A stretch of 64,000 bases of DNA from Mytilus galloprovincialis (taxonomy: Eukaryota > Mollusca > Bivalvia > Mytilida > Mytilidae). How positions within the stretch are numbered: position 1 is the stretch's first letter; every line of letters starts with the position of its first letter. Below are positions 33,116 through 62,007 of this stretch, in pieces. The stretch covers positions 76,843,410-76,907,409 of the forward strand of contig NC_134839.1 of assembly GCF_965363235.1 (NCBI RefSeq), written 5' to 3'. A program made the translations under genes and the position numbers. The notes beneath the pieces were generated by a model. The model was not told where the DNA came from. It did not search any database and saw only the letters and a list, made by a program, of their open reading frames with translations.

Positions 33116-33212
33116 GTACCAATTTTCTTTGTAAGCTTTGTTAATAAAACTTCTGCAAGTTATTATCGAGCGATTCATATGTAAATATAGAGATAATTCA
33201 ATCCGTCAAGTC

Positions 33213-33300: not shown

Positions 33301-33303
33301 TGT

Positions 33304-34800: not shown

Positions 34801-36950
34801 AACTCAATGTAAAGATGATTAGATCCATTCTGTGCCAGTAGTCGAGCCTACGTGTAACAATCAATATCATTGTAAAGTTGATTTAGTCCACACGTTCATA
34901 TAAGCCTACCTTCCATATAACATATACTGAAAATGTAAAAATGATATAGTCCACAAAAGCTACTAGCCAACCTTACATGTGACAGCCAATTTAAATGTTT
35001 AAATGATGTGGTTGTAATTACAGCCCAATAAGCAATTCCTTTAATAAAAATACGTATTTCTTATTCAGGAATTAATTTTTAGATGTTATATGTACGAATT
35101 TTTGACAATTTTTCTAGACTGAAAATATTTCACTGTAAAAAAAAGGCGATACAGGCAAAAAGATAATAACGAACTAACACTGACATGACAAAAAACTACC
35201 AAAAGACAAACATTAATCTCCAAACACAACTCTTAGCAAATGAACCTACAACTGTAGTGATTTTAGTTACTCAGGAGTGTAAGTAGATCATGCCTTTCTG
35301 GCATTGATTAAAAGGTTGAAAGTCTTCATGATAAATGTATTACACAAAATGAAAAATATCAAGGTCAGATGAATCCTGCTAGGTGTACATGTACACTTTC
35401 AATTTTTCCATGCACCAATTGTAGCTGCCTCGTTTCGTAGCTGAAAAAAGTACAAAACAACTAAAATTTAGCGTTGGTTACTAATTTATAAAATGAGGTT
35501 AAGGTCATGCTTGCCTTGCAAAACATCTATATGCCATTAAAATCATCATACAAACCAGGATTGAAATTTTGTATTTGCGCCAGACGCGCGTTTCATCTAC
35601 TAAATACTCATCAGTGACGCTCGAATAGGAAAAGTTAGAAAACCAAATAAAGTACGAAGTTGAAGAGCTTTGAGGACCGAAATATCATTAACTTTGCCAA
35701 AAAACAGTTAAGGTAATCTATTACCGAGGCAGACAAGCTCTAGTATTTGTAAACAGTTAATTAAAAATTATGACAATGTCAAAGATACTTCATGTCAACA
35801 TAGAAGTGATGACTACTGGGCTGGAGATACAATCGGGGAACAAAAAACTCCTCTAGCAGTGGCATCGACCCAGTGGGTGAGAATAAACTCATCATAGATA
35901 CCAGGATTGAAATTTTGTATTTGCGCCATGCTTGCGTTTCGACGCAATTAGACTCATCAGTGAAAACTCGAATAAAAAAAGTTAAGTTGAGAAATATCAT
36001 TATAATAATTTAACATCAGCCAAAGAAATAAGAGATTGAGGTCAATAACGGAGATTCGACATATCCAGAAGAAAATGTCATATTTGGGTACAAGATATGG
36101 AAATAAACTGATCATAGATACCAGGCTAACACTTTTGTACGGCAGACACATGTTTCATCTACAAAAGACTACCACAATACAAGTACGGAATGGAAGATCA
36201 TGGAATACCTTTAATTCCAATTTGTTTTTGAAAAATACAGCTAGGATAATTTATTCCTTGGTAAGACACTCTTTAGTAATTCGAAATGTATGTTATCTTT
36301 TGAAATTTTAGTCATTTATCTGATTCTGTAAATTCAGAAATTAATGCGTGCATTTATTATTCTGAATCACTGATTGCTGGTAAAATGGGAGATCTGACGA
36401 AAGCAACTGCTGAAATTATTTGAAGTGAAAATAAATGAATTAGAATTTTTATTACTGCGATCATGAAACTGTCGCATTGTTTGCATATAAAAAAACCGGC
36501 AATAATTTCTAAACATTGCAGTAGTTTAGGTCGCCGCCAGATTAGCATACCTATGTGTCGAATTCTGCTACAGATGTCATTAACTAGACAAAAACGTAGG
36601 TTGGAAAACTTAGTATTGATATCTGATTTATTTGCAAATATTTTGTATGCATTCAGGATTTATTAAAGTTGTGTTTTGTAGATATATAAAGGTATTCGGT
36701 AGATTAAAGTTTTTGACTAGCAGTTCCCGTGTCCATTGAATTATAATAATGTGAAGTTTTTAATGAATCCTATTCAATGATACATCGACAAAATTAAAAT
36801 GTGTTATTCAACATCTTTGACATTTTAGTACAAACTTTAATTCCTTTTTCATTTTAATAAAGATGCAATAACATTAACCACCTGTGTCTTTGTGATTTTA
36901 TAAAACAGTTTAGTACATTCACTCATAGATGAACACTGAGGAAACCAAAC

Positions 36951-36959
36951 TATATAAAG
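36951..36959 (+). promoter_or_regulatory. TATA box of gene X
   Basis: tatataaag, 75 bases before the exon 1a ATG; the sister copy keeps ctataaaaatt at the equivalent place (54245). Confidence 0.6.
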
Positions 36960-37033
36960 CGAAATAAAGTCCACTTACAAATACTTGTTAATCTCACTAA
37001 CTATAATATACTGTAGCTATTTAAAAGGGAAAA

Positions 37034-40000
37034 ATGCAAATCAGTTCATTCCTTTTATTTTTGTGTATTACAGGATTCCAGATTTCGCATGAGTATGCTT
37101 TGGGTAAGTTTCTTTTTGGTACGGAACAATTAATTTTCATTTGCATAAGTTCACTTGTTCGTGCTAATATTGGAAGAAACAGAATGCTATAGATATTTAA
37201 AAGGAGAAATATGCAAAGCAGTTCATTTCTCTTCTTTTTGTGTATTACAGGATTCAAGATTTCGCATGAGTATATTTTGGGTAAAAGAGAGACGAAAGAC
37301 ACCAGAGGGACAGTCAAACTCATAAATTTGAAAACAAACTGACAACGCCATGGCTAAAAATGAAAAAAGACAAACAGACAAACAATAGTACACATGACAC
37401 AACATAGAAAACCAAAGAATAAGCTACACGAACCCAACCAAAAACTAGGGGTGATCTCAGGTGCTCCGGAAGGGTAAGCAGATCCTTCCCAATGTGGCAC
37501 CTGTCGTGTTGCTTATGTAATAGCAAATCCGGTAAATAGTCTAATTCGGTAGGTCACATTCATGAAAGGGAAGGGGTTGTAGTTACGACGTCAGGAACAT
37601 GTCCGATATCATTTGTGAAACGGTTATTCCATAACGGTCAACTTAAATTTCTTTTTGGTACAACACAATTTATTTTCAGTTAAACTAGTTCACTTGTTTG
37701 TGCTACTATTGGAAGACACGTATTGAGATAAACATGTTTATGTATCATACTTAGAATAGTTATTTTGCATACAGGGATGATGGTCATAATGTTTTGCATG
37801 GGGAAATTACTCTTAGTTTCAAAATGCAATAACAGTTAAAATAGAGAGAAATGTCTTATTCATAAATATAAACTATTTAAACAATATTGAAATATTAAAG
37901 TTAAAAACAATTTTGTCTCCACGACTTTGATCGCGTTTGTACCCGATGAATTGTAAGGGTAAGTGTTGCTTAGTCTTTAGTTTTCTATGGTGTGTCTTGT
38001 GTTTTATTATTTCTCTGTTTGTCTTTTTATTTTTTTACCATGTCGTTGTCATATTATTTTCGATCTATGAGTTTGCCTGTCCCTCTGGTATCTTTCACCC
38101 TCTTTTAGCGTGACACAAGTGTCATAATCAATGGCATATTACTTTTATTTAGATTTATGTGTTGTCACAAGTGTTTCTTAGACCTCTAAGGTTTCACAAT
38201 AAACTATTCAGAAATGTACATACAATTGATTATATGTGGAAATTAGACAGTTTGAAATGTTTCAATTAAGTGTGTTTTCTTGTAGATGGAAAGACCAAAC
38301 AGAGTGCATTAGATGAGACAATAGTTCAATTGATAAGGTCCTCGCTTTTGTCAGATGACAAACGGGAAAGTGTTACATGTCCAGAAGGAATGGAATATGA
38401 TGAAGACAAGGAACAGTGTAAATGTTTTAGTGAAGACTCTACATACAATCCAGACAAAAAGAAATGCCAGTGTAATGATGGTTTTAAAGAATTAACCTCT
38501 ATGGATAATCGTATATTCTGTTATAAAAGATACGACGGTGAGCTATCCAATAAGATCACTTACTCTTCTTGAAGAAAAAGACATTTTAAAATGGCATTGA
38601 CGGTCATGGTTAAAAACAAATCACTTTAGCAATTTCAAAATTTTACAATTCATATACAATATAAGCAAATCAATACTAGTATATATATATGCATGTGTAC
38701 TTGTGATATTTTCGACAATTATTTTAATTGCTTTGTGATACATTCAGAACAAAACAAACCTGTAACGAAGCGCCGACCCTATATTTGGAAACCTCAATGG
38801 TCTGAACACCCAATAATGAAGCCATCGGAACACCGAAGTGTTCCCTTTGTTATTATAAGCTAGCCATGCAACCATGCATCTAATATTGCTCGACTAGACC
38901 CGACACTATTTAAGTGTTTTGACAGTTAAATCTTGAGATGGTCATCTTAATAAAAGAGGCATTACTTAAATATAATGAAATTTGCCAATTATTCGTGTAT
39001 ACATTAATATATTTATATTTAACTTTTCATGAATAGATCTCATAATAGATCTGCTAACATCAAGGTTACAACTGCCAATTATATGTCCTATAAATGTAAC
39101 ATATTTAGCATGCCTCCATTTGTGTTTGACATTTGGAACTATTGGTCAACATTGAAACTTTTACACATCCTTTGCCAAACTGCATGTGTAATGATACTTT
39201 TGATTTCTATATTGACTCATAGGACCCGACAGTATTTTAATGTTTCGGCAGTTAAAATTTGATGGTATTACTTTGATAAAATCAAATATAAAAATTTGTT
39301 TATTTGAAAGTTGTAACAAGGTCAAGAATTGTTTGGATTATAATAATTGCTATTTAGTTGTTATAATCCTTATATACTTTTACTGTATCTCTCATAATTT
39401 TTTCAGTTAACAAATTAAACGTTCTGTTGGCTTAAAAAAAAAACTAAGAAGAAGAACGAAGACTACAATATAAATGCCAAAAGAAAAACATCAAATAAGA
39501 AAAATATGTAAAATTGAAGATTATCGCATCAAATTACCATTTACCTCAAGTTGAACTCTGGAGCTTACAAACCTAGCTTTAATGGGCCTTTATAAAGAAT
39601 GAACAAAACACAATCCGAAGTATAAGTTTGAATACCGCGTTATCATGTATGCATTCATATCATGAAAGAATAACCTTGTACAGTAGGCGAGGAGTTTGAA
39701 GTAGTTTATGTTTGATATCTCTAGCCTATGAACACTAAAGTTATGAATCATAAACCCGCTCGTGGCAGGTGCCGTCGACACAAATCTGAATATACTAGGA
39801 CCACAAATTTTCCTGAAGAAACTCTGGAAATACTACTGCTTTCTCCTCATATTAAATTGTTGCCACGATTCAACCCTATAGTGATAGTTGGGCTTAAAGC
39901 GGCGACACCTACTATCAATCAAGTATGCAATTCTGAAAATATCTGTTTTAAAAAGTTTCCGATCTATATCATCTGTCAACGTACGGGTGACTTTTGTATT

Positions 40001-40281
40001 GCCAAAAGAAAACCCGCTGTAAAGCGGAACAAAGTACATTATGTAACAGAATCGCTATATAAGCCGTTATTGTGACCTGTGGTGATAAACGTCCTTCACT
40101 TTGTACTTATTTTTTGGTGTGAATATGTGTCTCAATGGTGATTATTTATCTGTTTTGTTTTGCGCACAAACTTAAATGAATAAAATGTCAAAATAAACTA
40201 ATATATCATTTTATTTCTACAGATGCTTTTGGCCTACCTGGATTGGATGGATTGGTAACCAAAGATAAACGCCATTCTTAG
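37034..40281 (+). CDS. Gene X: secreted six-Cys prepropeptide, three exons
   Basis: Exons 37034-37103, 38286-38537 and 40223-40281 join in phase 1 throughout: GTAAGT donor, ttttcttgtag acceptor, GTGAGC donor, ttatttctacag acceptor. Product 126 residues. Exon 1 is a signal peptide starting MQISSFLLFLC. Exon 2 begins with an acidic pro-region ending SDDKR, a dibasic site. It is followed by six cysteines, C-x12-C-x-C-x13-C-x-C-x15-C, in two loose repeats of the form C-P-x-G ... C-x-C. Exon 3 adds AFGLPGLDGLVTKDKRHS. A TATA box stands before exon 1 and AATAAA (40348) lies 67 bases after the stop. Without the last splice the frame would end at 38572 with GELSNKITYSS. The repeated C-x-C pattern recalls EGF- or TIL-like knots, but no family fits well. 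Likely a processed secreted peptide; role unknown. Confidence 0.7.
37211..37280 (+). CDS. Gene X duplicate first exon (1b)
   Basis: A second 70-base signal-peptide exon, 177 bp after exon 1a, with the same phase-1 end. It starts MQSSSFLFFLC and ends near SHEYIL. Its intron begins GTAAAA where 1a has GTAAGT, because an antisense retroelement tail begins about four bases into the intron. Exon 1b has no TATA box of its own, so it would be reached only by splicing or a weak start. Confidence 0.55.
37282..37648 (-). mobile_element. 5'-truncated retroelement tail, antisense in X intron 1
   Basis: The minus strand reads VDRYGITVSQMISDMFLTS and then a non-coding 3' region ending in gtccctctggtgtctttcgt. 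I recognise this as the end of a reverse-transcriptase element abundant in mussels. The same 3' tail recurs in plus orientation at 37985-38100. Right of the insert (37650) the intron sequence tttctttttggtac resumes as after exon 1a. The element is a 5'-truncated fossil. Confidence 0.7.
37985..38100 (+). mobile_element. Retroelement 3' tail fragment
   Basis: Plus-strand relative of the 37282-37648 element's non-coding end: tttgcctgtccctctggtat and a T-rich stretch before it. Confidence 0.55.
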
Positions 40282-40347
40282 CCATAGAAACACCATGCGC
40301 AGTCAAAGAAACGAGATATTTCATCTCAAGAAAATAGTCATGTCTGT

Positions 40348-40353
40348 AATAAA
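40348..40353 (+). terminator. Poly(A) signal of gene X
   Basis: AATAAA 67 bases after the exon 3 stop codon. Confidence 0.5.
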
Positions 40354-41559
40354 ATAATCAATTATGCATTTTTTTTATTACCTTATGACATGAAAATGAC
40401 AATCATTATTTCGAAAACATATATATCAATCAGATGTTGAATTAATTGTTTTCCCTATCCCTTCCTTTTTATTTGACAAGCTTTTATGTCTTTACCAATA
40501 TTAAAACCACACAGATAGCATACAATAAATGATAAGATCAGATAACAGAGAACAGAGAAACGCGGTTGATATTCTAAGAGAGATAAACTACAACGATACA
40601 TAACAGAATACATGCTAATAAAAGAACAAACGAATGAACGAACGAACAAACGGACGCACAGACCCGAAAACAATATGTCTATAAATGAAGCATGAAAAGT
40701 TAACTCTAAGGCATACTAAAAAATAGGAAGTTAACAAAAACTCACAAAATCACAAAAACGCCTTCAGTCAACGGAACAAGTGAAAAACAACTGCCATATT
40801 CCTGTCGTGGTTAAGAAAAAATAGAAATAAAAGATTTTCTGAATAAAACCGTGTTTAATAGCTAGCTATACCTCCAACTTGTATGACGGTTGGTTTTGAT
40901 GTATTCACAAAATTGAATGAGCTACCCAAACAGACATGAAATGACAATAATTGGGTTCCAGCATCCATACTGTTAATATAACAAACTTACAACATAACAG
41001 ACAAAATTTAACAAACATGCAAATAAATCTAACAAAGACGCCAACAAAAAAGGTGTAGTAGATATTAAATTTGAAAGTTAACAATGACGTCAACAAAAAA
41101 GTATTTGTTGTTGATAGCACATACTGTTCATAATATATATGTTACAGTGAATTTATGAAATCAGGATTTGTAAAATTCATGGAATAATTAGTAATTTTGA
41201 AAATAGAAAAAAAAACAACGCTGCTATTACACTTTTTGTCCGATTTGCACCTCTGGAACCACTTGCACCAAGAATGTCAAAAGTTCAAAAGTTAAAACCG
41301 TATGGCGGGATGTATAAACAGCGAGTCACGTCAAAAACCATACAATCATGCAAAATTATACCACGAAGACAGATATCGGGAAACGAAAGTAAAATAAATC
41401 ACTTATTATATATTACTCAAGACCATACTCAGTTGTATTAATTTTGATATTGACACTAAATTGTTCATCATTAGGTCTTGGTTCTTTCCGGTGACATTTT
41501 TGGGACAAGGACAACTCCTCGGACACCGATGACGTTTTCTTGCTTAAGTGTTAGTAGTA

Positions 41560-41990
41560 GCTGGAAGCTTTCAAATAATGTATTTGTTTATAAATTTATT
41601 CTTCTTACCAAGCGAAGTTAGTATATTGCTGCTGAGAAAATTCATCATTTCAAAATCGTTTCGTTTGTCACAAATTCTAGTTCTGAAATGACCGTTGTTG
41701 TCAAATTCTAAGTTGATGTCTAAAAATGATCAAAGGAAACTGTATCTTTTGTTTTCTTTTAATCTGTAGTTTCGGAGGGTATATCAATAGGACACAATTA
41801 GACAAATTTGGATTGTTATTGAAAGAACTTCATCAATAAGCTTGTACGTGAAGATGTGAATAGTCTAGCTTCTTTGATCCATTAGTTTTAAACAAGTGTC
41901 TGAAAGAACTCTTAGTTCATATGATAATCAGACAAAGGTCGGCCAGGAGAGGTGCACAGTTAGTTCCCGATAAGAAATTTCACCATCTTG
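41560..41990 (-). mobile_element. Reverse-transcriptase fossil
   Basis: The minus strand retains GTNCAPLLADLCL and, further on, FLDINLEFDNNGHFRTRICD and KRNDFEM. These are recognisable blocks of an invertebrate reverse-transcriptase element that seems to be the same family as the tail at 37282-37648. The copy is broken, with several interruptions, and lies in the 3-kb stretch of copy A that copy B lacks. Class (LINE-like or Penelope-like) is unsure. Confidence 0.7.
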
Positions 41991-42601
41991 ATCACTTGTT
42001 CTTCGCTGTAACATGTTTTTCGGGCTTATATTTTTACAAAATATGTAGAATCATATCACAAAGCAATACATTTCTGGCGTATGGTATTATCTTGGACTAT
42101 ATTTAACTCTTTAATTGTTTAGCAATTGTTGTCACTAATGAAGAAAGAGAAATCCATTTTGAAAGGTTTTTGATAGTAGTGTATAATAAAAAGACCAAAT
42201 GACATAGAAGTTTAAAAGAAACAACTCATGGGATTTATCTAAGTGTTCGGTGCATGTTTGGTTTACGCATATTCGTAAATTGTTTTGATTTCTATGTGCG
42301 ATTGTAGTTCCATTGCTGAAAAGGGATTGTGAACTTTATTAAGTGTGGGATAAATATTACATAATTACGACAGGTTATAATTGGTACAATCATTTAAGCA
42401 ACATTTTTAAGTTGCGATTGTGAAACCGTCTTCGATCGCTTACCGAAGAAAAACAAGCCAATATATGCATAATGTGTTATTTGTCCTTTGTAAATTGACA
42501 TAAAACAAATAACAGTTAATCAGTATCTTTGCAATCATGTTTTATAGAATTATTGTATCAGTGTGATCGATAAAAGGTCATCACTGTGTTTTTTTTAATT
42601 T

Positions 42602-42633
42602 ATGAAGACGACCTATACTATTACGAAACTTAA
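42602..42633 (+). pseudogene. Relic alternative last exon of gene X (copy A)
   Basis: In phase 1 this reads (D)EDDLYYYET and stops. The sister copy at 56088-56122 reads (V)DDDDLYYNET and stops, behind an intact atatatttttcag acceptor. In copy A the sequence before it no longer ends in AG. AATAAA follows at about 42944. It looks like the ancestral last exon of X, replaced in copy A by the exon at 40223. Confidence 0.45.
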
Positions 42634-43114
42634 TTTCCTTCATTTTGCGTATAGACCAGGTGATTCAAATTTAGTATGCTCGACAAAGAAGAAAGGCGAA
42701 AGGTCGACCAATGATCTAGGTTTACTGTCATTGAATGTAGAGTGTTTGGTGATACACATACATTTGGTACGTCTCGTGTTTCCTGTATATAACTTATCAA
42801 GTTTGCGCGATTTGTAACCTTTCTTCAAATTGTCAAAGCATTTCAAAACTTTCATGTGTCATCTGTGTTCAAAGAGGCATAACTTATTGTGTATTTCCAA
42901 AGAGATTTTCATTCTAAAACAATATGTGTTCACTGTATAAAGACAATAAACTTTGTTTTAAAAAGTTCTCATTTTAATAAATTTTTGCCTCAAATTGAAG
43001 TTGTAGGAATGCACGGTGCTCTTTTTTTTTAATCCGATTTATCTTTTTAGTCTTACATTAAAAAGAAAGGTAATGTTTTTTTACCTGCAGATTTATAGTA
43101 AAAACGAATTCTGA

Positions 43115-43595
43115 GGGCTCTTAAACTCATATCGTCGCTGGTCTTCTAAAATGTCGTATATGAATTTTTGGCTAAAAATACTTTTTGACACCAATGGTCA
43201 GGGCGAGAGGAAATCTTTGGTATTACAAAATAGCATACAGTTAGACCAATCAAAATGTGTGAACTAAGACATATTACAAAATTGCCAATGTCAGTTGTTT
43301 GTAAAGTTTGCTTCCAAAATGTTGTATGAAAACTTTAAAATCGTTGTAGAATGGCTTTGGGAAAAAAAAAAATAATTGTACATTTCTTTATTTCTGTGAA
43401 AATAATTTAAGTTCTTGGATAATCTAGAAATGCCAACGTTTTTATTTCACTGCTATTTACAAATATGTTCAAGTTCACATACGACATTTTGGAAGCATGC
43501 ATTTTGCCAAAATTTTCAAAGCCTGTTTGTGAGAAATTTTTTTTCTTGACAACATTTCAGAAGCCCAGCGACGATATGAAACCTCAAATTTAAAA
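43115..43595. mobile_element. Inverted-repeat element inserted in copy A
   Basis: Left end tcatatcgtcgctggtcttc and right end gaagcccagcgacgatatga are inverted repeats; copy B lacks the segment (near 56590). Non-coding, about 480 bp; type unassigned. Confidence 0.6.
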
Positions 43596-45711
43596 CAAAA
43601 TAAAGCTTATGTTTTTTATAACTAGATGGATAGTTTTCATATTAAAACTTATGTACATATACTTTTTTCTGAAGATTTTTTAAAAATTTTTCCCACATTT
43701 AGAAGAAGTTTCCTTTTTTTAATTGCTTTCTTCCAGGAAGCAATTCACCGACATATTTTCCGTATGCAAGTGACCTCAGCGTGACCCCTCTCGTAAAAGT
43801 CAAGTGATCGCAATACGCATGAATTTGTCATTTAAATAAACTTTAATATGATTGTACATGTTAAACAAGTGCTCAATATCCATGCTTTTTTGTTGATTGT
43901 TTACTATAAGTTGACAATCGGTAAACTACGGCTTTAAAAAAGACAATTAAGTAGCTGCCATATTTTCAGAAATTAACAGACAGAGTGAAAATAAAAATGA
44001 CGATTATTCCAAATGTTTGCGTAAAAAATAATAAAATCGTGCACAGAAGACTAAGTTTAGGATATATACATACATTGGTTCAATAATTGGTTAAACATCA
44101 TTTTTCACCAATCATTCGTTTCATATGACTTTAATTTGATTTCAAGGTTATGAGCCCTTCTGTGAAGAGACTGTCATACAAGTGAAAGTTTTGACTAGCT
44201 ATGAAAGCAGGTTTAATCAACCATTATCTACTTTAGGAAATGCCAGTACCTGTCAAGTATATGAAAGTTGTTTTCCATTCGTTTGATGTGTTTGAGCTTT
44301 TTATTTTACCATTTGTTAAGGGTCTTACCGTTTTGAGTTTTGAGTTTTCGTTTTATTTTTCATGTTTGCTTTATTTACTTTTTAATATATGGCGTTTGAA
44401 ATATATATTTTTAAATCATGATGGTAGAACATCACTCTTTATTTGCTGTGATTTTTTTATTGAGGTGTTTTCCATTATATCTGTTTGTTAGCATATAAAT
44501 TTAACATTCCTGTTTTATACAGTTGCTTGTAACAGTATGCAGATTTATTTTTAAAAGACAAATTAAACAAACTCTGTTTAATAGTGTATGCTTGATTATA
44601 TAAGGTGAACTTCCGATGATACATGTATTGGTTTTAATTACTACACCAGTTTTTGTAATAGTTTGACACGTTATCCCTTTCTGCACTAATTGTATGAAAA
44701 CAATAATCTCAGAAGATGATTGAATGATGTAAGAGTCATAACATATGAATCAACATATGATAACAAGTGTTAATGGAATTGACAACTTTGTGGTATGTGG
44801 AAGGCACTCGAGGGGGATTTTCGTTGACCAAAAGAATGAAAATTAATTTTTATGATCATAAAAGAAACATAGTTAGTCATGGATTATCGAATTTGTTATA
44901 ATCTCGATAATTCAATTATTAATCTAAAAATTCCTTGCCAAAGCTCGGACTTTAGAATCGGACAATTAAAATATTTCGATTGGATAATTCCGATAATCCA
45001 CTGGTATCAATGTCAGAATCTATATTTATATTTCTTAATATATATATATATGCAGGTGACATTCGTAATTTGTTAATATAATTATGTTCATATGTTATTT
45101 TAGTTGTTTGTCTGTGATGTATGGTTATACAATTTTGGCTAGGATCCCAATTATTGTTACAGTAATCTATTGAGTTTGTTGTTGTTGAGTATTCTCACCT
45201 AATTTGGCTAATAAAACGGAACTATTAACAACTGTAATGTAATTGAAAGGTTTAGCTATAACTATAAAACCAGGTTTAACCCATCTTTTTTTCGAAAAAT
45301 GTCTGTACCAAGTCAGGAGTATGACGGTTGGTTTCTATTTATTCCGTTTGTTGTCCTAATACATAGTACTTGACAAACTAAAATGATCTCATTTGTTTCA
45401 CTATTTTAATATGTGACTGTAAATAAATACAAAACATCATATAAGTTATGTTTGATTTACAAAACAAAATCTATACTTTTTAAAAACATTTCAAATTATG
45501 TTCCGATACATATAGATTATCATTATAAATTTGAATCGTCATTTATTTTTTTTAAGCTAAAATCCAATGTTCCCGTACAGCTTGATCAAAACAATATTTT
45601 ACAATATTTTCACATTGTTATGTACTATATAAATCTATACAATAGAAAACGTGTTATTGAGGAATTTGAATTAATATATATTAAACAATACAAGTACACA
45701 ATTTGGCTAAG

Positions 45712-46052
45712 ATGGAATGTGTTAAAATTCAAGTATATATATATTTCTTATACTTCTTTTTCTAGCACAAAATATGAACTGTAAGTAATTGTAAAAATGT
45801 TTGTGTTAAATTTAAATGTATTTTTTGTTTGTTTAAAAAATTCCCTTTTACTAGAATATGAAACCAAGAACTAGAATAAGTGATAAGAGTGATTCATGCG
45901 AACGTTCGTTGTTAAAAAGAGCAGAACATTAGCATCTGACATACAATATAATTATACCTCATATATTATAGCTTGTCAATACACTATTCACGAAAAATGT
46001 GTCACAACTTCCAATTTATTGCAAAACAAAAACATATTGCATCTGTACCCTT
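45712..46052 (+). pseudogene. Gene Y, broken copy A
   Basis: Aligns with the intact gene at 58073-58472. The start MECVKIQ is kept, but the rest of the signal-peptide exon and the mature exon have lost their frame through several small changes. The 360 bases upstream are also conserved between copies. A long frame overlapping this region (45413-45784) does not follow the Y reading frame and is not supported. Confidence 0.65.
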
Positions 46053-47073: not shown

Positions 47074-47101
47074 TTAATATAAACAATGGGTGTATATCAT
47101 T

Positions 47102-49025: not shown

Positions 49026-49189
49026 CAATGGGACATCTTCCCACAAGCTACCAAATAACACAGAACTGAACAACTATCGGTTACTGTACTGGCTTCAGCT
49101 ATTAGTAAAACCCATACCGCATAGTAAGCTTTAAATGGCCCCTAAATGACAAATGTAAAACAATTCAAACGAAAAAACTAACGGCCTAA

Positions 49190-50710: not shown

Positions 50711-51249
50711 TAATGTTAAGACGACGAAGTCCACTTTGTGCCAGTGGTTATCCTTACGTGAAACATTTAATGTCATTGTAAAGGTGATTTAGTTCTTACA
50801 ATCAAACTAGATAGCCTTACATATAACATCTAATGAAAATGTAAAGATGATATAGTCCATCCATAGCCTTTAGCCAACCTTACATGTGACAACCAATATA
50901 AATGTTTAAATAATTTGGTTGTAACTACAGCCCAATCAACAATTCTTTAAATAAAAATATGCATTTCTAAATCAGAAATTCATTTTTAGATGTTATATGT
51001 GCGATTCCTCGACTATTTTTGTTAACTTTGAAAATATTTCACTGTAAAAGACAGGCGGTAGATACTAAAGGGATATTCAATCTCATAGATATATAATGAA
51101 CTAACATTAACAAACATACGTTTTTAAACTCAACAGCAATATGAACCGAATACTCACAGTGGTGATCCCTGGTACTCTTGGAGTGTTAGCAGATCTTGTT
51201 TTACTGGTAATGATTAGAAGGTTGAAAGTCTTTATGATAAATGTATTAT

Positions 51250-51460
51250 ATAAATAAGGGCAAAAGTAGTATACCGCTGTTTGAAATTCATCAATCGATT
51301 GAGAAAAAACCAAACACGGGTTAAAAACTCAAACTGAGGGAAACACATCAAATATAAGAGGAGAACTATGACACAATAGAAACATAACACTTAAACGTGA
51401 CACACACAGAAACCAACTATAATATAACAATGGCCATTTTCCTGACTTGGTACAGGTGTA
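51250..51460 (+). repeat. Family G repeat
   Basis: gggcaaaagtagtataccgc through to ctgacttggtacaggtg; complement of 2480-2960. It interrupts copy B relative to copy A. Confidence 0.65.
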
Positions 51461-52930
51461 ATACTGTAAGGGACCTCCTTATATAATAAATTTATATGTC
51501 ACGTGACATGTATTAGCCAACCATAACAATCAAAACAAAAATGGTGGGACAAGTTGAGCCCGGCAATTGCCTGAACTTTCATGAATTTGGAGTTACTTAA
51601 GAGTTAACAGCTTGCCCGGGTGTGGCGCTTTATTAGCTATGACTTTAAGGAAAGCGGGACTATAGGTTAGAACGTCGTACATTACGTAAATTTTAATCGG
51701 GCAAGCAAAACATGGTTTGGGGTAAAGCGCTTTGATACAAAAATGGCGTAATTACATTGTAAACAGGCTTAGTGCAAAAATAACCCAAGGGCGACACATT
51801 CATATCATTTAGATACATAATTATAATAGGAAATTGTTAATTGAATTTCATGTTTCCACGTTTACTGATCTTGCAAAAATACTAAAATCTCAAAGAAATA
51901 CATAGCAGACGAATTCCCAGGCGTCTAGACGGTCATGTGACTTTGTTAACATGGCGATCGATTTCGATCAGCTGAGAATCAATAAAATTCTATTTTACTT
52001 CTTATCTAAAACATGTAAAGATAATCATTACAAAAATAAAGCAGCAGTTAAACGTGGAAATGGTACGGCTTTTACTTTTATACGATTTTAAGCCCTGTGA
52101 AATTTATGAAAAGAAACAACAAACATGACTATTTTTGAACTTCTGAACAAGTTAACAAATTATGAAATATTTCCATTGAAACTATTTCCTGGCTTGCAAC
52201 AAGAAAAATCATTAAATATCTTAACATAACAAAGGGCCTTAGCCAAACATTATCAACAAGAACTTGTAAATCGGCAAAACATGAAAAATAAATGGAAATG
52301 TTGATTTCCAAAAATTAAAAAATGTCAGGGGGGGGGGGGGGTACACCCTGCACATTACAATACCGTACTACCAAATCAAAGTACGTCATAACCGGTTATA
52401 TACGAAAATAGGTCGAAAAAAATTATTCCCTAACAGTTGTAGGTAATTAATCCTACATTTTATTGCAGTAAAACATTTATATGTCATAAACATATGTCTT
52501 GGATATTTCAAGGCACCATTATTTTTTCATTTGGGATTTCTATTGAAAACTTGAGGTTACATGGCTACTTAACCTTGTACACAGATTAAATAAGGGGAGA
52601 AATTTGATTGCTTAACTTCCAGTGATGGTTATTTTCTTATATGCAATAAAATGTTATGTGCATTTTTTTCTATAGTACTGGACAAGATAAAAACTTACTC
52701 ATGCTAAATATTTCAACAAAAACTAATAGGGGAAAATCAACGGTGGTATTACACCTACAGGACATCTTAAGAAAACAAACTGGTTGGTTGAACCTGGTTT
52801 TGTGGCAACCCAACCTCCCGCTTTTATGGCAATGTTAAATATAACATTAAAATTACAACATTATATGACAGGACTACACTACAAATAAACATGTAGGACA
52901 GAGAAACACACGAATAAAAGCTAACGAAAG
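51460..52930. other. Insert-rich part of copy B, no gene
   Basis: Not matched in copy A. It includes a gtcacgtgac palindrome (51499-51508), a G12-type run at 52329-52340, and a partial family G/F copy at 52750-52860. Confidence 0.35.
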
Positions 52931-54326
52931 GTACCAGGTTTAAAATTGATTAAGCCAGACTCGTGCCTCGTCCACACAATACCAACCAGTGACGCTCTGG
53001 TGGAAAAGTCAAAACAAGTACAAAGTTGAAGAGCATTGAGGACACGAAATGATCCAAAAAGTTGTGCCTAATACGGCTAAGGATTTCTGCCTGGGATAAG
53101 AACATCCTTATTATTTAGAATAATGCATACTTTTGTAAACTTAATCATACCACTGATCCATGAAACCTATCATGGTCATATTAATCCTGCTAGTTTGAAA
53201 TGTGCACTTTTAATCTTCCCATGCATCAATTGTAGCTGTCTCATTTCTTAGCTGTAAAAAAAGAACAAAACCGCTCTGAAACGTGTATGTCATTAATCTA
53301 TGAAATGAGGATAAGTTCAGGTGATCCTTGTCTGAAAGCCTTACATGCAAACCATTCATATGCCAATTTAGTTGTCACACTAGATGAGAAATATCATTAC
53401 ATAATTTTAACAGCCAGACGTGCATTTTGTCTACACAAAACTCATCGACGCTAAAAAAACAAAGGTAAAATAAAGTACGAATTTGAAGAGCATTACATAC
53501 CTACAATTGCAAAAGTTTTTGCCAAATAAAGCTTATGTAATTGATAATTCCCGGAGAAAGCAATAATTAGTAGTTCAAAAAATATTCATGGTTTGCTATC
53601 CTGTGAAATTTAAATCACTTATCTAATCTTAAATTAACAAAAAACTAACGTGCATCTGATAAATGCAATTGCGGAATAGAGGCAAAAGATTCCACGGAAA
53701 ATAAGATAAAAGAAAATCATTAGTGAAAAAAATGAATATGAATTTTTATTACTGTGATCACGAAAATGTCACATTGTTCGTATATAACAAACGGCAATAA
53801 TTTCTGAATTTTGCAGTAGTTGATGTCGCCGCCAGATTAACGTTCCTATCTGTCGAAGTCTGCTTCTGTAACATATGTCGTAGGCTCGACAAATAAAGTA
53901 GGTTGAAAAACTTACATATTAATTTCGGGATTATTTGCAAATCTACGCATACGTTTAGATTTTATAAAAGATGTGTTTTGTAGATACAGAATGGTATTCT
54001 GTAAATTAAAGATTTTGACAGGCAGTTCCCGTGTTCATTGAATTATAATAATGTGAAGTTTTTAATGAATCTTATTCAATAATTCATCGATAAAATAAAA
54101 ATTGTGTAATTTAACATCTTTGACATTTTAGTACAAACTTTAATTCTTTTTCCATTTTCATAAAGATTGAATAAGATCAACCACCTGTGTCTTTGTGAAT
54201 TTATAAATACGTACACTCACAAATGAACTCTGACGAAACCAAACTATAAAAATTGAAATAAAGTTTACTTGCAAATACTTGTTACTCTCACCACTGCAAA
54301 ATAATGTAGATATTTAAAAGGGGAAA

Positions 54327-56122
54327 ATGCAAAACAGTGCATTCCTCTTATTTCTGTGTATCACAGGATTCAAGATTTCGCATGAGTATGCTTTGGATAA
54401 GTTTCTTTTTGGAACGGCGCAAGTAATTTTCATTTGGAATTTGTTCACTTATTTTTAAACTGCTATGTAAACTATGGTAACTTTCTGAATGTTTCTACCA
54501 TATGTATTATAATCAGAATAGTTATTTTACATACACGGACGATGTCCATTATGTGTTGTATGCTAAATTACCCTCAGTTTTAAAATTCCATTACAGATCA
54601 GTTGCACAATTCATATTTTTAGAATCAACTGCTTGACAACCATTTTAAGTTGAAAATAAAAGGAAATTTCTTATTCATAAAGGTTAAAAAATTATTTAAA
54701 CAATATTTGAATATCAAAGTTATAATTAAACGATTTTAACTCCACGACTTTTGATCTTGTTTGTACCCGAGGAAGTTTAGCCTAACACAACTGTCATAAT
54801 CGATGCCATATTAGTTTTGTTTAGAATTATGTGTTGTGTTTACACTAATGTTTTCTAGTGTATAAGATTTTGCGGAAAACTATTTAGGAATGTACATTCA
54901 ATTGGTTATATGTGTAACTTAAATAACTCGAATGTTTCGAATAAGTGATTTTTTCTGAAAGATAGAAAGACCAAACAAAGTGCAGTAGATGAGTCAATAG
55001 TTCAATTGATAAGGTCCTCGCTTTTGTCAGATGATAAACGGGATAGTTTACGTGTCCAGAAGAAATGGAAGATTAAGGTTGGGATTGTATTACTTTGATA
55101 CAATTAAATGTAAAATAATTCATAAGCACATTGATATATGTATATTTAAATCTTCGTCAATAGATAATATGACAGGTCTGCCTTTATCAGGGGTCAATCT
55201 GTCATTTTTATGTTACACTTTTTTAATTGATCTAGTAAGCATGACTCCTACACTTTTGTGTTAGCACAGCTATTTGTTTCACATTACTGGAATCTAATGC
55301 AGGTAGAGAAAAGAAATGTTTTTCAAGGACAAGAATGCCATGTATTGTACATCTTTGACCTTTAATTACAGCAGCATCTACGATCGACTATTTAACGTTT
55401 GAGAGTTCATACTATGTGAATGTCAATGCGGGGATTTAACTATTTTCAAGACGGAACAATCTGTATTTCCATTTGATGTTCCATTATATACTATAAATCA
55501 AGCATTTTTGTATCTGTCATGCTAAAATGTTTTGTCTTATAATTTTATATTTAAATTCAAAAACTATTTCATTCATTACTTTAAACATAAGTATGTCACA
55601 AATTTCATTATATCAGGAAACCTCGTCGGTCTGGCACATCAAATTATGAAGTCATCGGCACGTCGAGCTGTTCTACTTTGCTTTGATTTCATACCACTTT
55701 AATTTATCATTTACTATGAATAAAAATCATATAGTTTAATGATGTGGTAGAGACGTCGAGTAAGGTTATACCTTTATCTCCACTTTTTATATTTATTCTA
55801 TTCTGACTTTCCCCTTTATTGCGTAAAATGATTGATATTATATCTCTCAGCATTTTCTCAGTTAAATCATAACACTTTCTGATGGGTTTAAACACTTAGA
55901 AGAAGAATGAGGAATAACATATCAATGTCAAAAGAAAAACATCCGATAAAATCAATGTGTAAAATTGAAGATCAATCTCACGAAATAACAATTTAATTCA
56001 GGGTGAACTCTAGTGCTTAAAAACACTAGCTCTCATTGGCCTCTATGACGAATGAACAAATCACAATCCGAAGTATATATTTTTCAGTTGACGACGACGA
56101 CCTATACTATAACGAAACTTGA
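54327..56122 (+). pseudogene. Gene X, broken copy B
   Basis: The first exon (54327-54396, MQNSAFLLFLC) lacks the GT donor that copy A has. The second-exon remnant (about 54962-55075) keeps the pro-region up to the KR site in part and then lacks the cysteine region, with copy-A sequence from 38410 to 39260 missing. A last-exon relic (56088-56122) survives with a good acceptor. The TATA-like ctataaaaatt remains at 54245. Clearly non-functional as gene X. Confidence 0.7.
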
Positions 56123-58072
56123 TTTGGTTTCATTTCGCGTATGGACAAGGCAGGTCATGATGGCTTTATATTGTGCAACGACAAAGAGTGGCAAAAGGTC
56201 GATATTTGTGTTTACTGTCACTGATTGTTGTGTTTTGTGTTATACGTATAATTTTTCTCAACTATAGAATGTTTTATGATAAAATATCAACGTTAACACA
56301 ATGTATAATCTTTCTTCAAATTGTCATAGTGTTTCATAATTTACATGTGTCATCTGTGTTCAAAGGGGCATAATCTATCGTAGACTCCAAAGAAGTTTTC
56401 ATTCTAAAAGATATGTGTTTTACATTTACTGTATGCAGACCAGAAACGAGGTTTGTTATTAAATTTTTTTTCAGTTGAAGTTGTAAAAATGTACGTTACT
56501 ATTTTGTTTATATCATTTATTGTTTTAGTCTTACGGCAAAGAAAGACAAATGGTTCTATCCGCAAATACAAAAACAAAAACCAATTCAGAGATTATTTGA
56601 TTTGTTTTTCAAGTTAAGGTGCCCTTTTTGTAGAACGATTAAATGTAAGTATTATGTGTAGCACAACAAATTCTAATTCAATATCTGATGTTGCAATAAT
56701 GTGATTTATTAGAATGAGATTTAAGATTTTAACACAATACGATAAGAATTTTCTCCGACTGGCATACAATTGAGAGGTATCGCTAGATATATAGTAGAAT
56801 TAACTTTTCATTTGTTGTATGACAGCTGTTAGTAGTTCCTTATTGTAAGCACCAATAGGTGAGCAACCTGAACAAACATAAAAGATAACTGTGACAATAC
56901 CGAGACAAAGTTTAATTAACCATTTTCTACATAAGGAAATGTTAGTACCAACTCAAAAATGTGAAAGTAGTTTTCCATTCGTTGAAGTGTTTGAGTTTCT
57001 ATTTATGCCATTTGTTAAGCGACTTACCGTTGTGAGTTTTCGTTTGAGTTTTTTGTTTGTTATTTGACTTTAAAGTATATGGCGATTGAGATATATTTTG
57101 TAAATCATTATTGTAGAATTCAACTTTTATTTACTGTGATTATTTTTATTGAGTTGTTTTCCATTATATCTGTTTGTTAATATAGGAATTTAACGTTCCT
57201 GACATTATACTGTTTCTCAAAACACTATGCAGATTATATTAAAAAAAAACAAAGAAGAAAAACTCTGTGTATGCTTGACTTTATTAGAAAAAACTAACCA
57301 TGAAATTGTTTTTAATTACTACACCAGTTTACATACCTGGATTAATATATGCATGTGACATTACAAATTGTTACAAGCAATCAATTTACATGTTAGTTGT
57401 GTTGTATATCTGTCATGTATGTTTACATAATTTTTGCTGCTTGAACCCAATTATTTTAACAGTAATCTTTTGAGTCTATTGTGTATTCTCATCCAATTTG
57501 GCTAATAAAACGGAACTATTAACAACTGTAATATAATTAAAAGGTTTAACTATAACTTTAAAACTAGGTTTAACCCATCATTATTTCGAACAATGTCTGT
57601 ACCAAGACAGGAGTATGAGGTTGGTTTCCTTTTCTTTCTTTTGTTGATAAAGTCTAACGTTTGATTTTGTCAGTTTTCATGTACACCCTCCGTTTGAATT
57701 TACCTTGTTCTGTATTTTTATATTAATTAATTGATTTATAAAAACGATGCATTTCCAAACAGCTGGAGAGAATATATTTAGTCCTTGTTCTTGTACAAAA
57801 CATTATGTAAACTATGTTTTATTATACAAAATATATCCATACTTTTCAAAACATTTCAAATTATTTTTCAATACATATAGATTATTATTATAAATTTAAT
57901 CGTTGTTTTTTTTTTAATTTGAAATCCCAAGTTCCTCTACAGCTGGATCGAACACATGCTTTACTCTGTTTTTCACCATGTTATGTACTTTACAAATCTA
58001 TTCAATAGAACACGTGTTATTGATGAAGTTGATTTAGTACAAAAAGCAATACCATTACGTAAGTTGGCTAGG

Positions 58073-58472
58073 ATGGAATGTGTTAAAATTCAATTATCTA
58101 TATTTCTTATACTTCTGTTTCTAGCACAAAGTAAGTACTTGCAAGCGTTATATGTTAAATTCATAAATGTATTTTTGTTTGTTTATAAAAAAATCCTTTT
58201 TATTGATAACATTTTCAATATTCTATAAATAATAAAAAAAAACACACAATTTAAGCTGCAATTTTTACTTACTAGAATATGACAAAAAAACTAGAATAAT
58301 TAATGACAGTGACTCAAGCGAACGCTTTGTGAAAAGGGGAAGAACATTTGCATCTGACAAATACTGTGACTATTCCTCACATATTATAGTTTGTCAATAC
58401 ACCACTCACAAACATAATTGTCATAACTGCCAAGTGTTCGCAAAAACTATCATATTGCAAGTGTCCACTTAA
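58073..58472 (+). CDS. Gene Y: secreted four-Cys prepropeptide, two exons
   Basis: Exon 1 (58073-58130) encodes MECVKIQLSIFLILLFLAQ, a strong signal peptide, and ends at GTAAGT in phase 1. Exon 2 (58276-58472) follows tttttacttactag and is open for 65 codons to TAA, giving 84 residues. A short acidic pro-region (KYDKKTRIINDSDSSERF) ends in VKR, a dibasic site. The predicted mature peptide starts GRTFASDKYC and is His- and Thr-rich, with cysteines C-x8-C-x8-C-x2-C (CHNC last). The intron is 145 bp. The same architecture as gene X (signal exon, phase-1 intron, pro-region, KR, Cys-containing mature part) but no sequence likeness. No family recognised. No AATAAA was seen close downstream. Confidence 0.65.
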
Positions 58473-58676
58473 AACCTTACCAAAAATTTGCCCAAATGCT
58501 TTTTACAAAATGTTTGCCAGCATCTTTCCTACAAATTGTTGTTGTACAATTTACACTTCACTTAAAGTAACTTTAACCTCAACCGTAGTAGATAGTATAA
58601 CGTCATTTTGCGGCAATTTCTTTACGACCAACATATTTCTACATTGAATTATATAGTCGTTTGCATTGGATACTTA

Positions 58677-59308
58677 CACTACAAACCAGAAAAAGTCTGA
58701 AATGGCCTATATCTATACTGATTTTTACTTGATCAGTCTGAATTGGTCTGAAATTTACTTGATAATACTCGACTGTAGTCTGAACCATACTTAACAGTCT
58801 GAATTTGTACTTGACTAGTACTTAACCATTTTATACGAGTCTGAACCATGCTCGACCTAGTCTGAACCATACTCGACCTAGTCTGAACCATACTCGGCCT
58901 AGTCTGAACCGTAGTCGACCTAGTCTGAACCATACTCGACCAAGTCTTAACCAACTTATCAATTGAGGATTTTTTTTTAATAAAAATGAAATTTGAACAA
59001 CAACTTGAAATTAAAAATGTATTCAATAGAGTATTGAAATAAAAATTTCACAATAATCAATCATAATATATAACTTCAACAAAATAGTAATCGACACTTA
59101 CATAATAATATATATCATCTTTAAAATATAAATAAAACAAGCTGATCAAATAAACCTAAAACAAATTGTGATCAATATTTTCAATATTATTTAAAGTTTT
59201 ATGAATATTTTATTGTAACTGGACTATTTTCACCATTAACTTAAGCCTAGTTTAGAGTTATGGTGTCAGTTGAGTTTAGTAAATAATGCAGTGAATATTT
59301 TTTTATTG

Positions 59309-59340
<32 letters not shown>

Positions 59341-60282
59341 GTATATAAAACAACTTAATAAATTTTAAAAAATGAGACCTTAATTATTTTGTTTTATTAA
59401 ATCAAGAATCTAATATAATCATGAAAATAGAATTTCCATAGCAATCCTTGATAACCTTTTTAATAAAGGAAATGTGTAAAAATTTATTTCAATTAGTTAA
59501 AGTAATTTTTGTCAAATTAAAGACATGGCATGCATAAAGCACTTTAATATGGTCTGATTACCTCAGTACATATGTGTTTTACAGGTAAAAAGAAAACCCT
59601 ATTTTCTGAAATTCGTGTATTAATTATCTAGAACATGTATATTTGAAAGGCCTTGCTACTAAGTTAAACAGGATGTTGCAATTTTGAATCAATGTTATTT
59701 AGAATTTAATACCTCTGACCAGGTGTGAACTTATTGATGAGTTTGCCCCAAGTAGAGGTAATACTTTATATTTCACCACTAATCAGAAATCCAATTTTAT
59801 TTATGTCTTACAGATTATCCTTTTTTAATATAAATTATATACATTTTTTTTTATCTTTAATATAGTAATAGATATATTTCTATTATAAGGTTAAACAATT
59901 TATAAATTTTTTTGGCTGTTGTTATATATGTCAATTAAAAAGAAATTTATTTTAACAGTTAAAAAAGTAGAGGTTATTTGATCTTAGTATGGTTCAGATT
60001 GGTCGAGTATTCAGACCTTTGGTTAAGTATGGTTTAGACTGGAAAAATAGGTCGAGTACAGGTCGAGAATAGGTTAAGACTGTTTCAGACTGGTCGAGTA
60101 ATAGTTCAGACTGTTTTCAACGGCAAAGATAAGGGACAAGCACGATTCAGTACAGTTGAGTATTGTTCAGACTGAGGTCGAGTAATGTCAAGTAAAAGTC
60201 AGACCAATTCAGACTGGTCGAGTAAAAATCAATACAGTCGAGTACAGATATAGGTCATTTTAGACTTTAATGGTTTGTAGTG
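58677..60282. mobile_element. CACTA-like non-autonomous DNA transposon
   Basis: Starts CACTACAAACC and ends GGTTTGTAGTG, flanked by TTA on both sides (58674-58676, 60283-60285). Inverted ends of about 80 bp agree with scattered mismatches. Inside each end lie clustered gtctgaa / gtcgag motifs, including five to six 21-bp copies of agtctgaaccatactcgacc at 58815-58945. A TA tract lies at 59310. CACT(A) ends, 3-bp target duplications and subterminal repeats are CACTA (CMC/EnSpm) traits. Copy A has the empty site near 46230. No transposase frame. Confidence 0.75.
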
Positions 60283-60582
60283 TTATGTTGTGTAATCCTC
60301 TTTTTATTTTGATATATTTTTCTGCCTTTTTTTTCCTAATCTTATTGTTTCTTCTTTTTTTCACTTCAACATGTATTTGACATGGCCTCCTCCGTTTCTA
60401 ATGTAGCTATAATGACCTTTGACCATCGATAGAATTCATCATGACGCATTTCCGGATGATGATGTGTAGGATTTCATAATTACCATTAGAATTTATCTCC
60501 CTTTATATATTATTTTCGATATGCCCCCCTCGTTGTTTTTGAAGATAGCGTTACTTCATTGAAATAATGGATATATGTCATC

Positions 60583-61506
60583 ATGAAGTATTACCAGATG
60601 ACCCTCTGTTGGGTTTTTATTATCTTCTTTTTAGAGATATTTGAATGTAACTTTAAAATTGTTACTGATAGGACTAATCTCAAAACGGCAACAATGAATA
60701 TTATGCACTATTTAAAAAGAACTAGAAGTCGTAAGGACATAAATAAAGGCAACAGTAGTATACCGATGATCAAAACTCATAAATCGATAGAAAAAAAACA
60801 AATCCGGGTTTCAAACCAAAACTGAGGGAAACGTATTAAATATAAGAGAATGTTAACAAAACATTAAAATTTAACAAACACAGAAACGAAATAAGAATTA
60901 GACAAAATCCGATGAGAATAACACATATAACATCATATATCCGATTCACCAACAGCCTTTCCGTAGCACACAATGTTAAATATCAAAGAGTACAAACAGT
61001 TTAATCTTACATTTCAAGCTTAAATACTCTTCAGAAAAATATACGAAATAGGTGCAAATACACAGCGTATAAGATGTTCCTCTCAAAAAGCTCTTATTTT
61101 ATACATTACCCACAAACTTTTCCAACCATCCGAAAATAATCAGTATCACTTTGAGTGCAATCAACCAAATTTCGTAGATGATGGTCTCATTTAATATCGA
61201 AATAAACGACATGAGGTCTCCATTATATATAACATACTTACGATCTCGAAAATTGTGGTGTATCAACTCATTTCATATGTCTTTATTTATAGTGTGACCT
61301 TCAAGCAATATCCTTTTTTGTTCATTCATTTCCTTATAGTTTCTCGTACTAAGAATAATAAAAAAGTAAAAACATGGAAAGCAAAGTTCCAAGCTTCTTC
61401 ACCACAGGAGGAAAGACGAGTTCAATTACCAGCATCTAACGGTCCCTCGAATTCTGGACCAACAGCGCCGGCCACGGGTAGTAGAACGAGTAGGTATTGC
61501 ATTTAG
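60583..61506 (+). CDS. Gene Z: putative secreted basic peptide, two exons
   Basis: Exon 1 (60583-60646) starts MKYYQMTLCWVFIIFFLE, a signal peptide, and ends in phase 1 at GTAACT, a weak donor. Exon 2 (61340-61506) follows catttccttatag and stays open in the matching phase: SRTKNNKKVKTWKAKFQ, then a Pro/Ser/Thr-rich tail ending TSRYCI. The 76-residue product has a Lys/Arg-rich centre and almost no cysteine. A family G repeat (60740-60905) lies in the intron. Support is the matching phase, the strong acceptor and the paired exons in copy A; the weak donor is the main doubt. Confidence 0.4.
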
Positions 61507-62007
61507 TCAAACGCATTCGTATCTCATGCAAACATCTAATTACTTTTCTATGAGGTCTGATTGCCAATGGGACAACTCCCTACAATCGACTAAATATCAC
61601 AGAACTGAACAACTACAGGTAACCGTACTGCCTTCAACTATGAGTAAAAACACTTACTGCATAGTAAGCTATAAAATTCCCCCAAATGTAAAAACCATTT
61701 CTTAAGTAGTAAATGTTTTTCTCGACCGATCAAGTATGTTGCTACTGATATATTTTCTCTGTAACTTGTGAGCTTCCCGTGGTTTTGTCATCTATCTGGA
61801 GGTTTTATACCCAGGGAAAACTTTAGGCTTTCAAACCAAATGACGAGGTTAAGATGTACGCTTAGAAATGGCATTGTTCCGTCACTGATAACCAATTGAA
61901 TTGCTAGAACCTATGCTGAAACTCGAAATTAACTGATAGAGCTGTGATACTGTAAATTGATTGAAACAATTTGTCTCGGTATGAAATTCGGCCGAATTCT
62001 CTTTTAA

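What the first reader, a model, noticed from the sequence alone, without database searches (positions are those of the whole stretch)
34805..61705. Duplicated block holding three unrelated secreted-peptide genes
Copies A and B share the ordered set X, Y, Z on one strand. Each gene has a signal-peptide exon ending in phase 1 followed by a short exon with the mature part; X and Y have a dibasic KR site before a Cys-containing peptide. The three proteins do not resemble each other, yet lie within about 12 kb and were duplicated together. A compact cluster of this kind looks like a secreted-peptide locus not covered by the known mussel antimicrobial families.
Basis: partly seen in the sequence, partly recalled or inferred. 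Interest (0 to 1): 0.75.

Follow-up and report, generated by a model that had tools for sequence, protein, structure and literature searches.

The report
Tandem family of secreted hairpin peptides

Summary

'Unrelated' fails for X and Y. Sequence beyond the window shows that X heads a same-strand array on this chromosome: eleven copies of its hairpin exon over about 226 kb, nine with the full motif C-x12/13-C-x-C-x2-G-[FYW]-x8-12-C. Protein searches found nothing better than E 0.26 on other chromosomes. The best-preserved genes have three exons: signal peptide, hairpin domain, short tail. In five genes the tail ends in GKR, GRR or a bare Gly, like a C-terminal amidation signal. One gene, X-D, has X-type later exons but shares its upstream region and signal exon with Y, so X and Y are linked by exon exchange.

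Best reading: a fast-evolving birth-and-death family of small secreted, half-EGF-like disulfide-hairpin peptides, below every Pfam cut-off and acidic or neutral rather than cationic. Defence or signalling is inferred, not shown.

The parts
34806..49148 (+). Duplicated block A
   Evidence: blastn A against B: 19 pieces, 17 strictly in order, 5,667 columns, mean identity 77.5%
50712..61688 (+). Duplicated block B; shorter, with no counterpart of about 39625-42590 and so of X exon 3
37034..37103 (+). X-A exon 1, signal peptide, ends in phase 1 (GGTAAGT)
   Evidence: 91% identical to X-B against 80% upstream and 59% mid-intron; upstream region plus exon 1 match X-C at z 16.2
37211..37280 (+). Tandem duplicate of X exon 1, followed at once by a dispersed repeat; probably not used
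   Evidence: family D5; the repeat at 37281-37642 has 39 copies at 93-94% among the 40 candidates scored
38286..38537 (+). X-A exon 2: propeptide, DDKR, six-Cys double hairpin; phase 1 at both ends
   Evidence: 48% protein identity to X-C exon 2 with all six Cys kept; AlphaFold2 block pLDDT 83-89 over residues 31-80, three beta hairpins
40223..40281 (+). X-A exon 3: DAFGLPGLDGLVTKDKRHS and stop
   Evidence: resembles X-D exon 3 DDRGFGNAGLDG
54327..54396 (+). X-B exon 1; splice donor mutated GT to AT (pseudogene)
54962..55073 (+). X-B exon 2 remnant: 1-base deletion shifts the frame, later part lost
58073..58130 (+). Y-B exon 1, signal peptide, phase 1
   Evidence: with its upstream region matches X-D at z 17.8 (alignment)
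58276..58472 (+). Y-B exon 2: propeptide, FVKR, four-Cys peptide, stop
   Evidence: only the A and B copies found in the genome search
45712..46060 (+). Y-A: frameshift in exon 1 (TA slip), stops in exon 2 (pseudogene)
60583..61506 (+). Z-B candidate (60583-60646 and 61340-61506): open frame, coding status not established
47102..48955 (+). Z-A counterpart with in-frame TAG
31938..32186 (+). Neighbour W1: 82-aa secreted protein with eight Cys; not part of the X family
   Evidence: only two copies found in the genome search
33330..33578 (+). Neighbour W2: tandem copy of W1
   Evidence: families D1, D2; 98.6% over 1,060 columns

Best explanation
The block is the upstream end of a same-strand array of small secreted-protein genes (here the 'X family') on chromosome C2, about 76.880-77.107 Mb.

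Shown from sequence: the best-preserved members have a phase-1 signal-peptide exon, an exon with the hairpin motif C-x12/13-C-x-C-x2-G-[FYW]-x8-12-C and phase 1 at both ends, and a short last exon. The array is made and unmade by duplication and decay. Y shares its upstream region and signal exon with the X-family gene X-D but has a different second exon, so signal and mature exons have been recombined.

Inferred: the protein enters the secretory pathway, is trimmed where KR or C-terminal GKR/GRR occurs, folds into disulfide-linked beta hairpins, is C-terminally amidated in the members whose tail allows it, and acts outside the cell as a fast-evolving effector. A defence or other external role (mucus, haemolymph) seems to me the likeliest use.
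For: The motif (written after seeing the genes) occurs five times in six frames of 182.5 kb, all on the + strand, at X-A, X-C, X-D, X-E and X-F; 60 shuffles of the same sequence gave none. Six further copies of the exon lie at C2 77.0517, 77.0590, 77.0753, 77.0825, 77.1018 and 77.1074 Mb, all + strand; four of the six fit the full motif. Queries X-A, X-C, X-D, X-E, X-F and X-G gave no hit off C2 better than E 0.26.

Signal exons with phase-1 donors were found for X-A, X-C, X-D and X-E; that of X-C also matches X-A in DNA at z 16.2. Phase-1 last exons ending G[KR][KR] or LDG in the 182.5 kb number four on + (X-D and its recent duplicate, X-E, X-F) and none on -. X-G and X-H add ISGKR and GDGRR.

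X-A and X-C align only at exon 2 and in the exon 1/upstream region, with all six Cys kept. Upstream/exon-1 sets are {X-A, X-B, X-C} at z 15-54 and {Y-B, X-D} at z 17.8; the other 17 of 21 pairs are below z 2. The X-A exon 2 model has three beta hairpins.
Against: No expression data could be examined. Signal-exon-like frames are common by chance: 24 rows in 28.0-99.4 kb on +, including the genes, and 13 rows in a 31-kb control stretch with a looser donor. No convincing exon 1 was found for X-F (15 weak candidates), none was identified for the distal copies, and no exon 3 for X-C. dN/dS for X-A against X-C is 0.67 and the bootstrap interval of pN-pS includes zero (-0.25 to 0.04). Pfam matches stay below cut-off; no PDB fold match is significant (best E 0.19). 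The tail of X-A has no amidation glycine, and X-E has a second possible last exon without one. Three of the six distal copies look damaged. A looser tail pattern gave 16 minus-strand matches in 23.9 kb. Nothing here tests function.
Confidence: 0.62

Rival explanations
1. The X family are structural extracellular proteins of shell or byssus, such as small acidic EGF-like shell-matrix proteins, rather than free peptides.
For: Most counted X-family peptides are acidic (X -4, X-D -6, X-E -5, X-G -5, X-H -5). A 2.7-kb Gly/Ala-rich silk-like open frame lies about 30 kb upstream, like the A/G-rich shell proteins described for Mytilus galloprovincialis; an EGF-domain shell protein of 241 aa is reported there too (PMC4517812, passages).
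Against: The mature parts are only about 50-100 residues, and five tails end like amidation sites, which has no obvious use in a shell matrix. Nearness to the silk-like frame is weak evidence.
Confidence: 0.25
2. The hairpin exons belong to one very large multi-EGF gene, not to separate small genes.
For: All intact ones have phase 1 at both ends and the same strand; no signal exon was identified for X-F or the more distal copies.
Against: X-A, X-C, X-D and X-E each have their own signal exon with a start codon; X-A, X-D, X-E, X-F, X-G and X-H have last exons with stop codons.
Confidence: 0.1
3. One reading: three unrelated secreted peptides, perhaps antimicrobial, in one compact cluster.
For: Y-B has a signal exon, KR and a four-Cys peptide of net charge +2; the block duplication is real; Z exons are somewhat more conserved than part of their flanks.
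Against: X and Y are linked through X-D; Z shows no coding substitution pattern; X-family peptides are not cationic; the array extends far beyond the block.
Confidence: 0.12
4. The frames are decayed or chance open frames with no working genes.
For: Many copies are damaged (X-B, Y-A, Z-A, and those at 77.059, 77.075 and 77.107 Mb); dN/dS is not clearly below 1.
Against: The motif did not appear in 60 shuffles; splice sites, phase, Cys spacing and last exons agree across genes whose introns no longer align.
Confidence: 0.07

Closest known systems
EGF / EGF-like and cEGF domains (Pfam cEGF PF12662, FXa_inhibition PF14670 and others)
   Same: C-x-C-x2-G-[FYW] hairpin, phase-1 exon at both ends, beta hairpins in the predicted model
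   Different: X-D and X-E have four Cys in the domain rather than six; every Pfam match is below the curated cut-off; no significant fold match
Mytilus CRP-I cysteine-rich peptides
   Same: Small secreted precursors, a dibasic site in some members, multigene family, fast evolution
   Different: CRP-I has a C-C-CC-C-C array with the mature part in the fourth and final exon (PMC10138031, passages); here C-x12/13-C-x-C-x12-15-C in a middle exon
Mytilins
   Same: Secreted Cys-rich mussel peptides, multi-exon genes
   Different: Mytilin array C-X3-C-X3-C-X4-C-X11-C-X-C-X-C-X2-C, strongly cationic (PMC7168163, passages); not matched here
EGF-domain shell-matrix proteins (gigasin-2-like)
   Same: Secreted, EGF-type, mollusc
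   Different: 241-aa protein in PMC4517812 (passages); ours are 76-126 aa with a short tail exon

Membership tests
EGF domain | Passes a curated EGF-type Pfam cut-off | tested here: not met
   X-A cEGF 21 bits against cut-off 26.6; X-C, X-D, X-E and X-F also below
EGF domain | Six Cys in EGF spacing (spacing recalled) | tested here: not met
   X-D and X-E have four Cys; X-A and X-C have six spaced 12-1-12/13-1-15
EGF domain | C-x-C-x2-[GP]-[FYW]-x4-8-C signature (PROSITE, recalled) | tested here: inconclusive
   Read off the sequences: fits X-E and X-F; last spacing too long in X-A, X-C, X-D
CRP-I | C-C-CC-C-C knottin array | tested here: not met
   No such array in X, Y or W (definition)
CRP-I | Mature part in the fourth and final exon | tested here: not met
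   Hairpin exon is the second of three coding exons found
Mytilin | Eight-Cys array C-X3-C-X3-C-X4-C-X11-C-X-C-X-C-X2-C | tested here: not met
   Spacings of X, Y and W differ (definition)
Cationic antimicrobial peptide (general) | Net positive mature peptide | tested here: not met
   Trimmed: X -4, X-D -6, X-E -5, X-F 0, X-G -5, X-H -5. Y is +2 and X-C exon 2, propeptide included, +3
Amidated peptide precursors | C-terminal Gly followed by two basic residues or by the stop | tested here: met
   Met in X-D, X-E, X-F, X-G, X-H; not met in X-A; last exon unknown in X-C; X-E has an alternative last exon without it
Amidated peptide precursors | Amidated peptide observed in tissue | not testable with these tools
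   needs peptidomics
Antimicrobial or shell-matrix protein | Expression in the tissue concerned, and activity | not testable with these tools
   no RNA-seq or assay available

The most novel reading that the evidence does not exclude
A single-locus gene family, possibly restricted to mussels, in which tandem genes pair interchangeable promoter/signal exons with interchangeable mature exons and release amidated half-EGF hairpin peptides. They would be external signals or defence peptides of a kind not described before, with X and Y as products of such exon exchange.
Probability: 0.3. Interest if true: 0.65.

Novelty: new variant of a known kind. Interest (0 to 1): 0.5.

Why it matters
Mussel immune peptides are known for strong diversity and gene presence/absence variation (abstract of PMC10138031). 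This locus would be a further family outside the peptide arrays checked here, with a visible record of birth, decay and exon exchange at one address. That makes the origin of new secreted peptides directly testable in Mytilus populations, and the precursors are short enough to synthesise and assay.

Tried and rejected
Rfam: no match in the window at gathering scores. PDB by sequence: nothing useful for X, W or the X-family profile. PDB by fold: 139 matches at E up to 10, none at E <= 0.001, headed by HER2 and other Cys-rich or EGF domains. Six peptide strings (X twice, Y, W, X-E, X-D) searched in the full text of the paper library: 0 papers. Topic searches (listings and abstract starts only) showed no title describing this family; most subscription papers are not held, so absence from print is not claimed. 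A genome-paper search found none. The species was not identified; 'mussel' comes from the finding.

Full report
1. What was checked. The window is G000:C2:76843410-76907409 of an unnamed 1.38-Gb genome. I compared the block with itself, searched the own genome by protein, and read neighbouring sequence: 118.5 kb joined to the window to give 182.5 kb contiguous, plus 23.9 kb in five distal stretches. Window numbers above 64000 mean downstream sequence; C2 = window number + 76843409.

2. The duplication. Blocks A and B give 19 blastn pieces, 17 strictly in order, 5,667 columns, mean identity 77.5%. The two exceptions are a repeat-like piece out of order and the second copy of X exon 1. B has no counterpart of A 39625-42590, which includes X exon 3.

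3. X. X-A has three exons with GT-AG sites and phase 1. Between A and B, exon 1 is 91% and the retained part of exon 2 (94 columns) 93% identical, against 80% upstream, 59% mid-intron and 74% at the intron end. So X was constrained before B decayed. X-B then lost its splice donor, took a 1-base deletion and has no exon 3. A more distant relative, X-C, lies downstream (exon 1 65701-65770, exon 2 66697-66951). A and C align at exon 2 (68.5% DNA) and in the upstream/exon 1 region (z 16.2), not in the introns. All six Cys are kept at 48% protein identity. dN/dS over 105 codons is 0.67, not clearly below 1. The DDKR before the Cys part of X-A reads HDKI in X-C.

4. Y. Y-B is a two-exon gene with FVKR and four Cys. 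Y-A carries a 2-base slip in a TA run and stops in exon 2. Exon 1 is 95% identical between copies, but exon 2 is only 71% against 81% downstream, so this pair gives Y exon 2 no conservation signal. Its support is the open 64-codon frame, the splice sites and the signal exon shared with X-D.

5. Z. Z-B is open; Z-A has one in-frame stop and stays open after it. Codon-position differences 15/19/14 and dN/dS 0.80 show no coding pattern. Exon 2 (73%) is less conserved than its 3' flank (82%) but more than the stretch before it (52%); exon 1 (83%) is more conserved than its flanks (56% and 63%). Exon 1 overlaps a 62-nt repeat with three listed copies. I do not count Z as a gene; it is not excluded.

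6. Beyond the window. Protein queries and a motif scan showed further genes on the same strand: X-D (83691-83775, 84067-84177, 85131-85168), X-E (97336-97417, 98676-98780, 100178-100221) and X-F (exon 2 ending 107358, starting at 107188 or 107252; exon 3 108687-108730). No convincing exon 1 was found for X-F among 15 weak candidates. The motif C-x12/13-C-x-C-x2-G-[FYW]-x8-12-C occurs five times in six frames of 182.5 kb, at these genes plus X-A and X-C, and in none of 60 shuffles (motif written after seeing the genes). Genome searches then gave six more copies of the exon at C2 77.0517 (X-G), 77.0590, 77.0753, 77.0825, 77.1018 (X-H) and 77.1074 Mb, all + strand. I read exon 2 of all six. Four of six fit the full motif. 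The 77.0590 copy has lost its acceptor AG and its first part is shifted, the 77.0753 copy lacks part of the motif, and the 77.1074 copy has a frame-broken last exon. So eleven hairpin-exon copies are known, nine with the full motif; X-B's remnant is extra. Queries X-A, X-C, X-D, X-E, X-F and X-G gave no match off C2 better than E 0.26; that search scores only its best candidates.

7. Tail exons. Last exons read: X-A DAFGLPGLDGLVTKDKRHS, X-D DDRGFGNAGLDG, X-E GKERWDNPSIRGKR, X-F DSTGCCLPGAPGKR, X-G DVITCCNQDISGKR, X-H MKGVTVYGNPGSPGDGRR. A scan for phase-1 last exons ending G[KR][KR] or LDG in 182.5 kb found four on + (X-D and its recent 2.5-kb duplicate, X-E, X-F) and none on -. A looser scan of the distal stretches, which also allowed any final G, gave 16 minus-strand matches in 23.9 kb, so only the strict form is informative. 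X-E also has a nearer possible last exon (99345, VENLLEPVIDVIIL; read) without a glycine. That Gly plus two basic residues, or a C-terminal Gly, signals amidation is recalled knowledge, not tested.

8. How X and Y are linked. Upstream region plus exon 1 of seven genes gave 21 pairs: X-A, X-B, X-C match each other (z 15-54), Y-B matches X-D (z 17.8), and the other 17 pairs, all with Z and X-E included, are below z 2. Y-A matches X-D at 66% over 397 columns. X-D's second and third exons are of the X kind. So Y and X-D share a promoter region and signal exon but differ in the mature part. No trace of a hairpin exon was found beside Y, so the direction of the exchange is unknown. The order X then Y in A and B is repeated as X-C then X-D.

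9. What it is likely to do. Shown: gene structure, hairpin motif, tail motif, duplication and decay. Inferred: secretion, disulfide folding, amidation and external action. AlphaFold2 on X-A exon 2 with only five rows gave mean pLDDT 72.8, blocks 83-89 over residues 31-80, three hairpins. Net charges of the trimmed peptides are X -4, X-D -6, X-E -5, X-F 0, X-G -5, X-H -5; Y is +2. That argues against a membrane-active cationic peptide for X. Foldseek gave no significant match and Pfam matches are all below cut-off.

10. Comparison. The CRP-I and mytilin arrays, as given in passages of PMC10138031 and PMC7168163, are not met. EGF membership is not met by Pfam cut-off or Cys number, though the hairpin looks like the C-terminal half of an EGF domain. 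A shell-matrix role remains open: passages of PMC4517812 describe A/G-rich and EGF-domain shell proteins, and a silk-like frame lies at 3966-6662.

11. Verdict. Observation and interpretation are each partly right. The finding is better described as the upstream end of a new tandem family of secreted half-EGF hairpin peptides with probably amidated tails.

Noticed in passing
window 31912-34363: Two 1.39-kb tandem copies, 98.6% identical over 1,060 columns, each with an open 82-aa secreted protein of eight Cys (spacing 3-6-5-12-2-6-3); no other copy in the genome search, no Pfam or PDB sequence match, helical low-confidence model.
   Followed up: partly
window 3966-6662, minus strand: 899-codon open frame rich in Gly, Ala, Ser and Asp with poly-Ala blocks, like the A/G-rich shell proteins described for Mytilus; no Pfam match.
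   Followed up: partly
window 37281-37642 and 37957-38107: A dispersed repeat of about 360 bp sits just after the duplicated X exon 1, and a related piece lies inverted in X intron 1; 39 copies at 93-94% among 40 scored candidates.
   Followed up: partly
window numbering 85052-90549 (downstream of the window): Recent tandem duplication of about 2.5 kb (98.9-99.3%) carrying X-D exon 3; the second copy is split by an insertion of about 580 bp that is 72% identical to 48183-48715.
   Followed up: no
window 29779-29916: Cys-rich open frame that looks like a peptide gene but has 128 mostly weak matches across the genome, so probably a dispersed repeat.
   Followed up: partly
window 58592-60282: Stretch of about 1.7 kb in block B without counterpart in block A, between Y and Z, carrying an array of a roughly 21-bp unit near one end (58765-58953) and what reads as its inverse near the other (about 59960-60270); looks like an insertion.
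   Followed up: no
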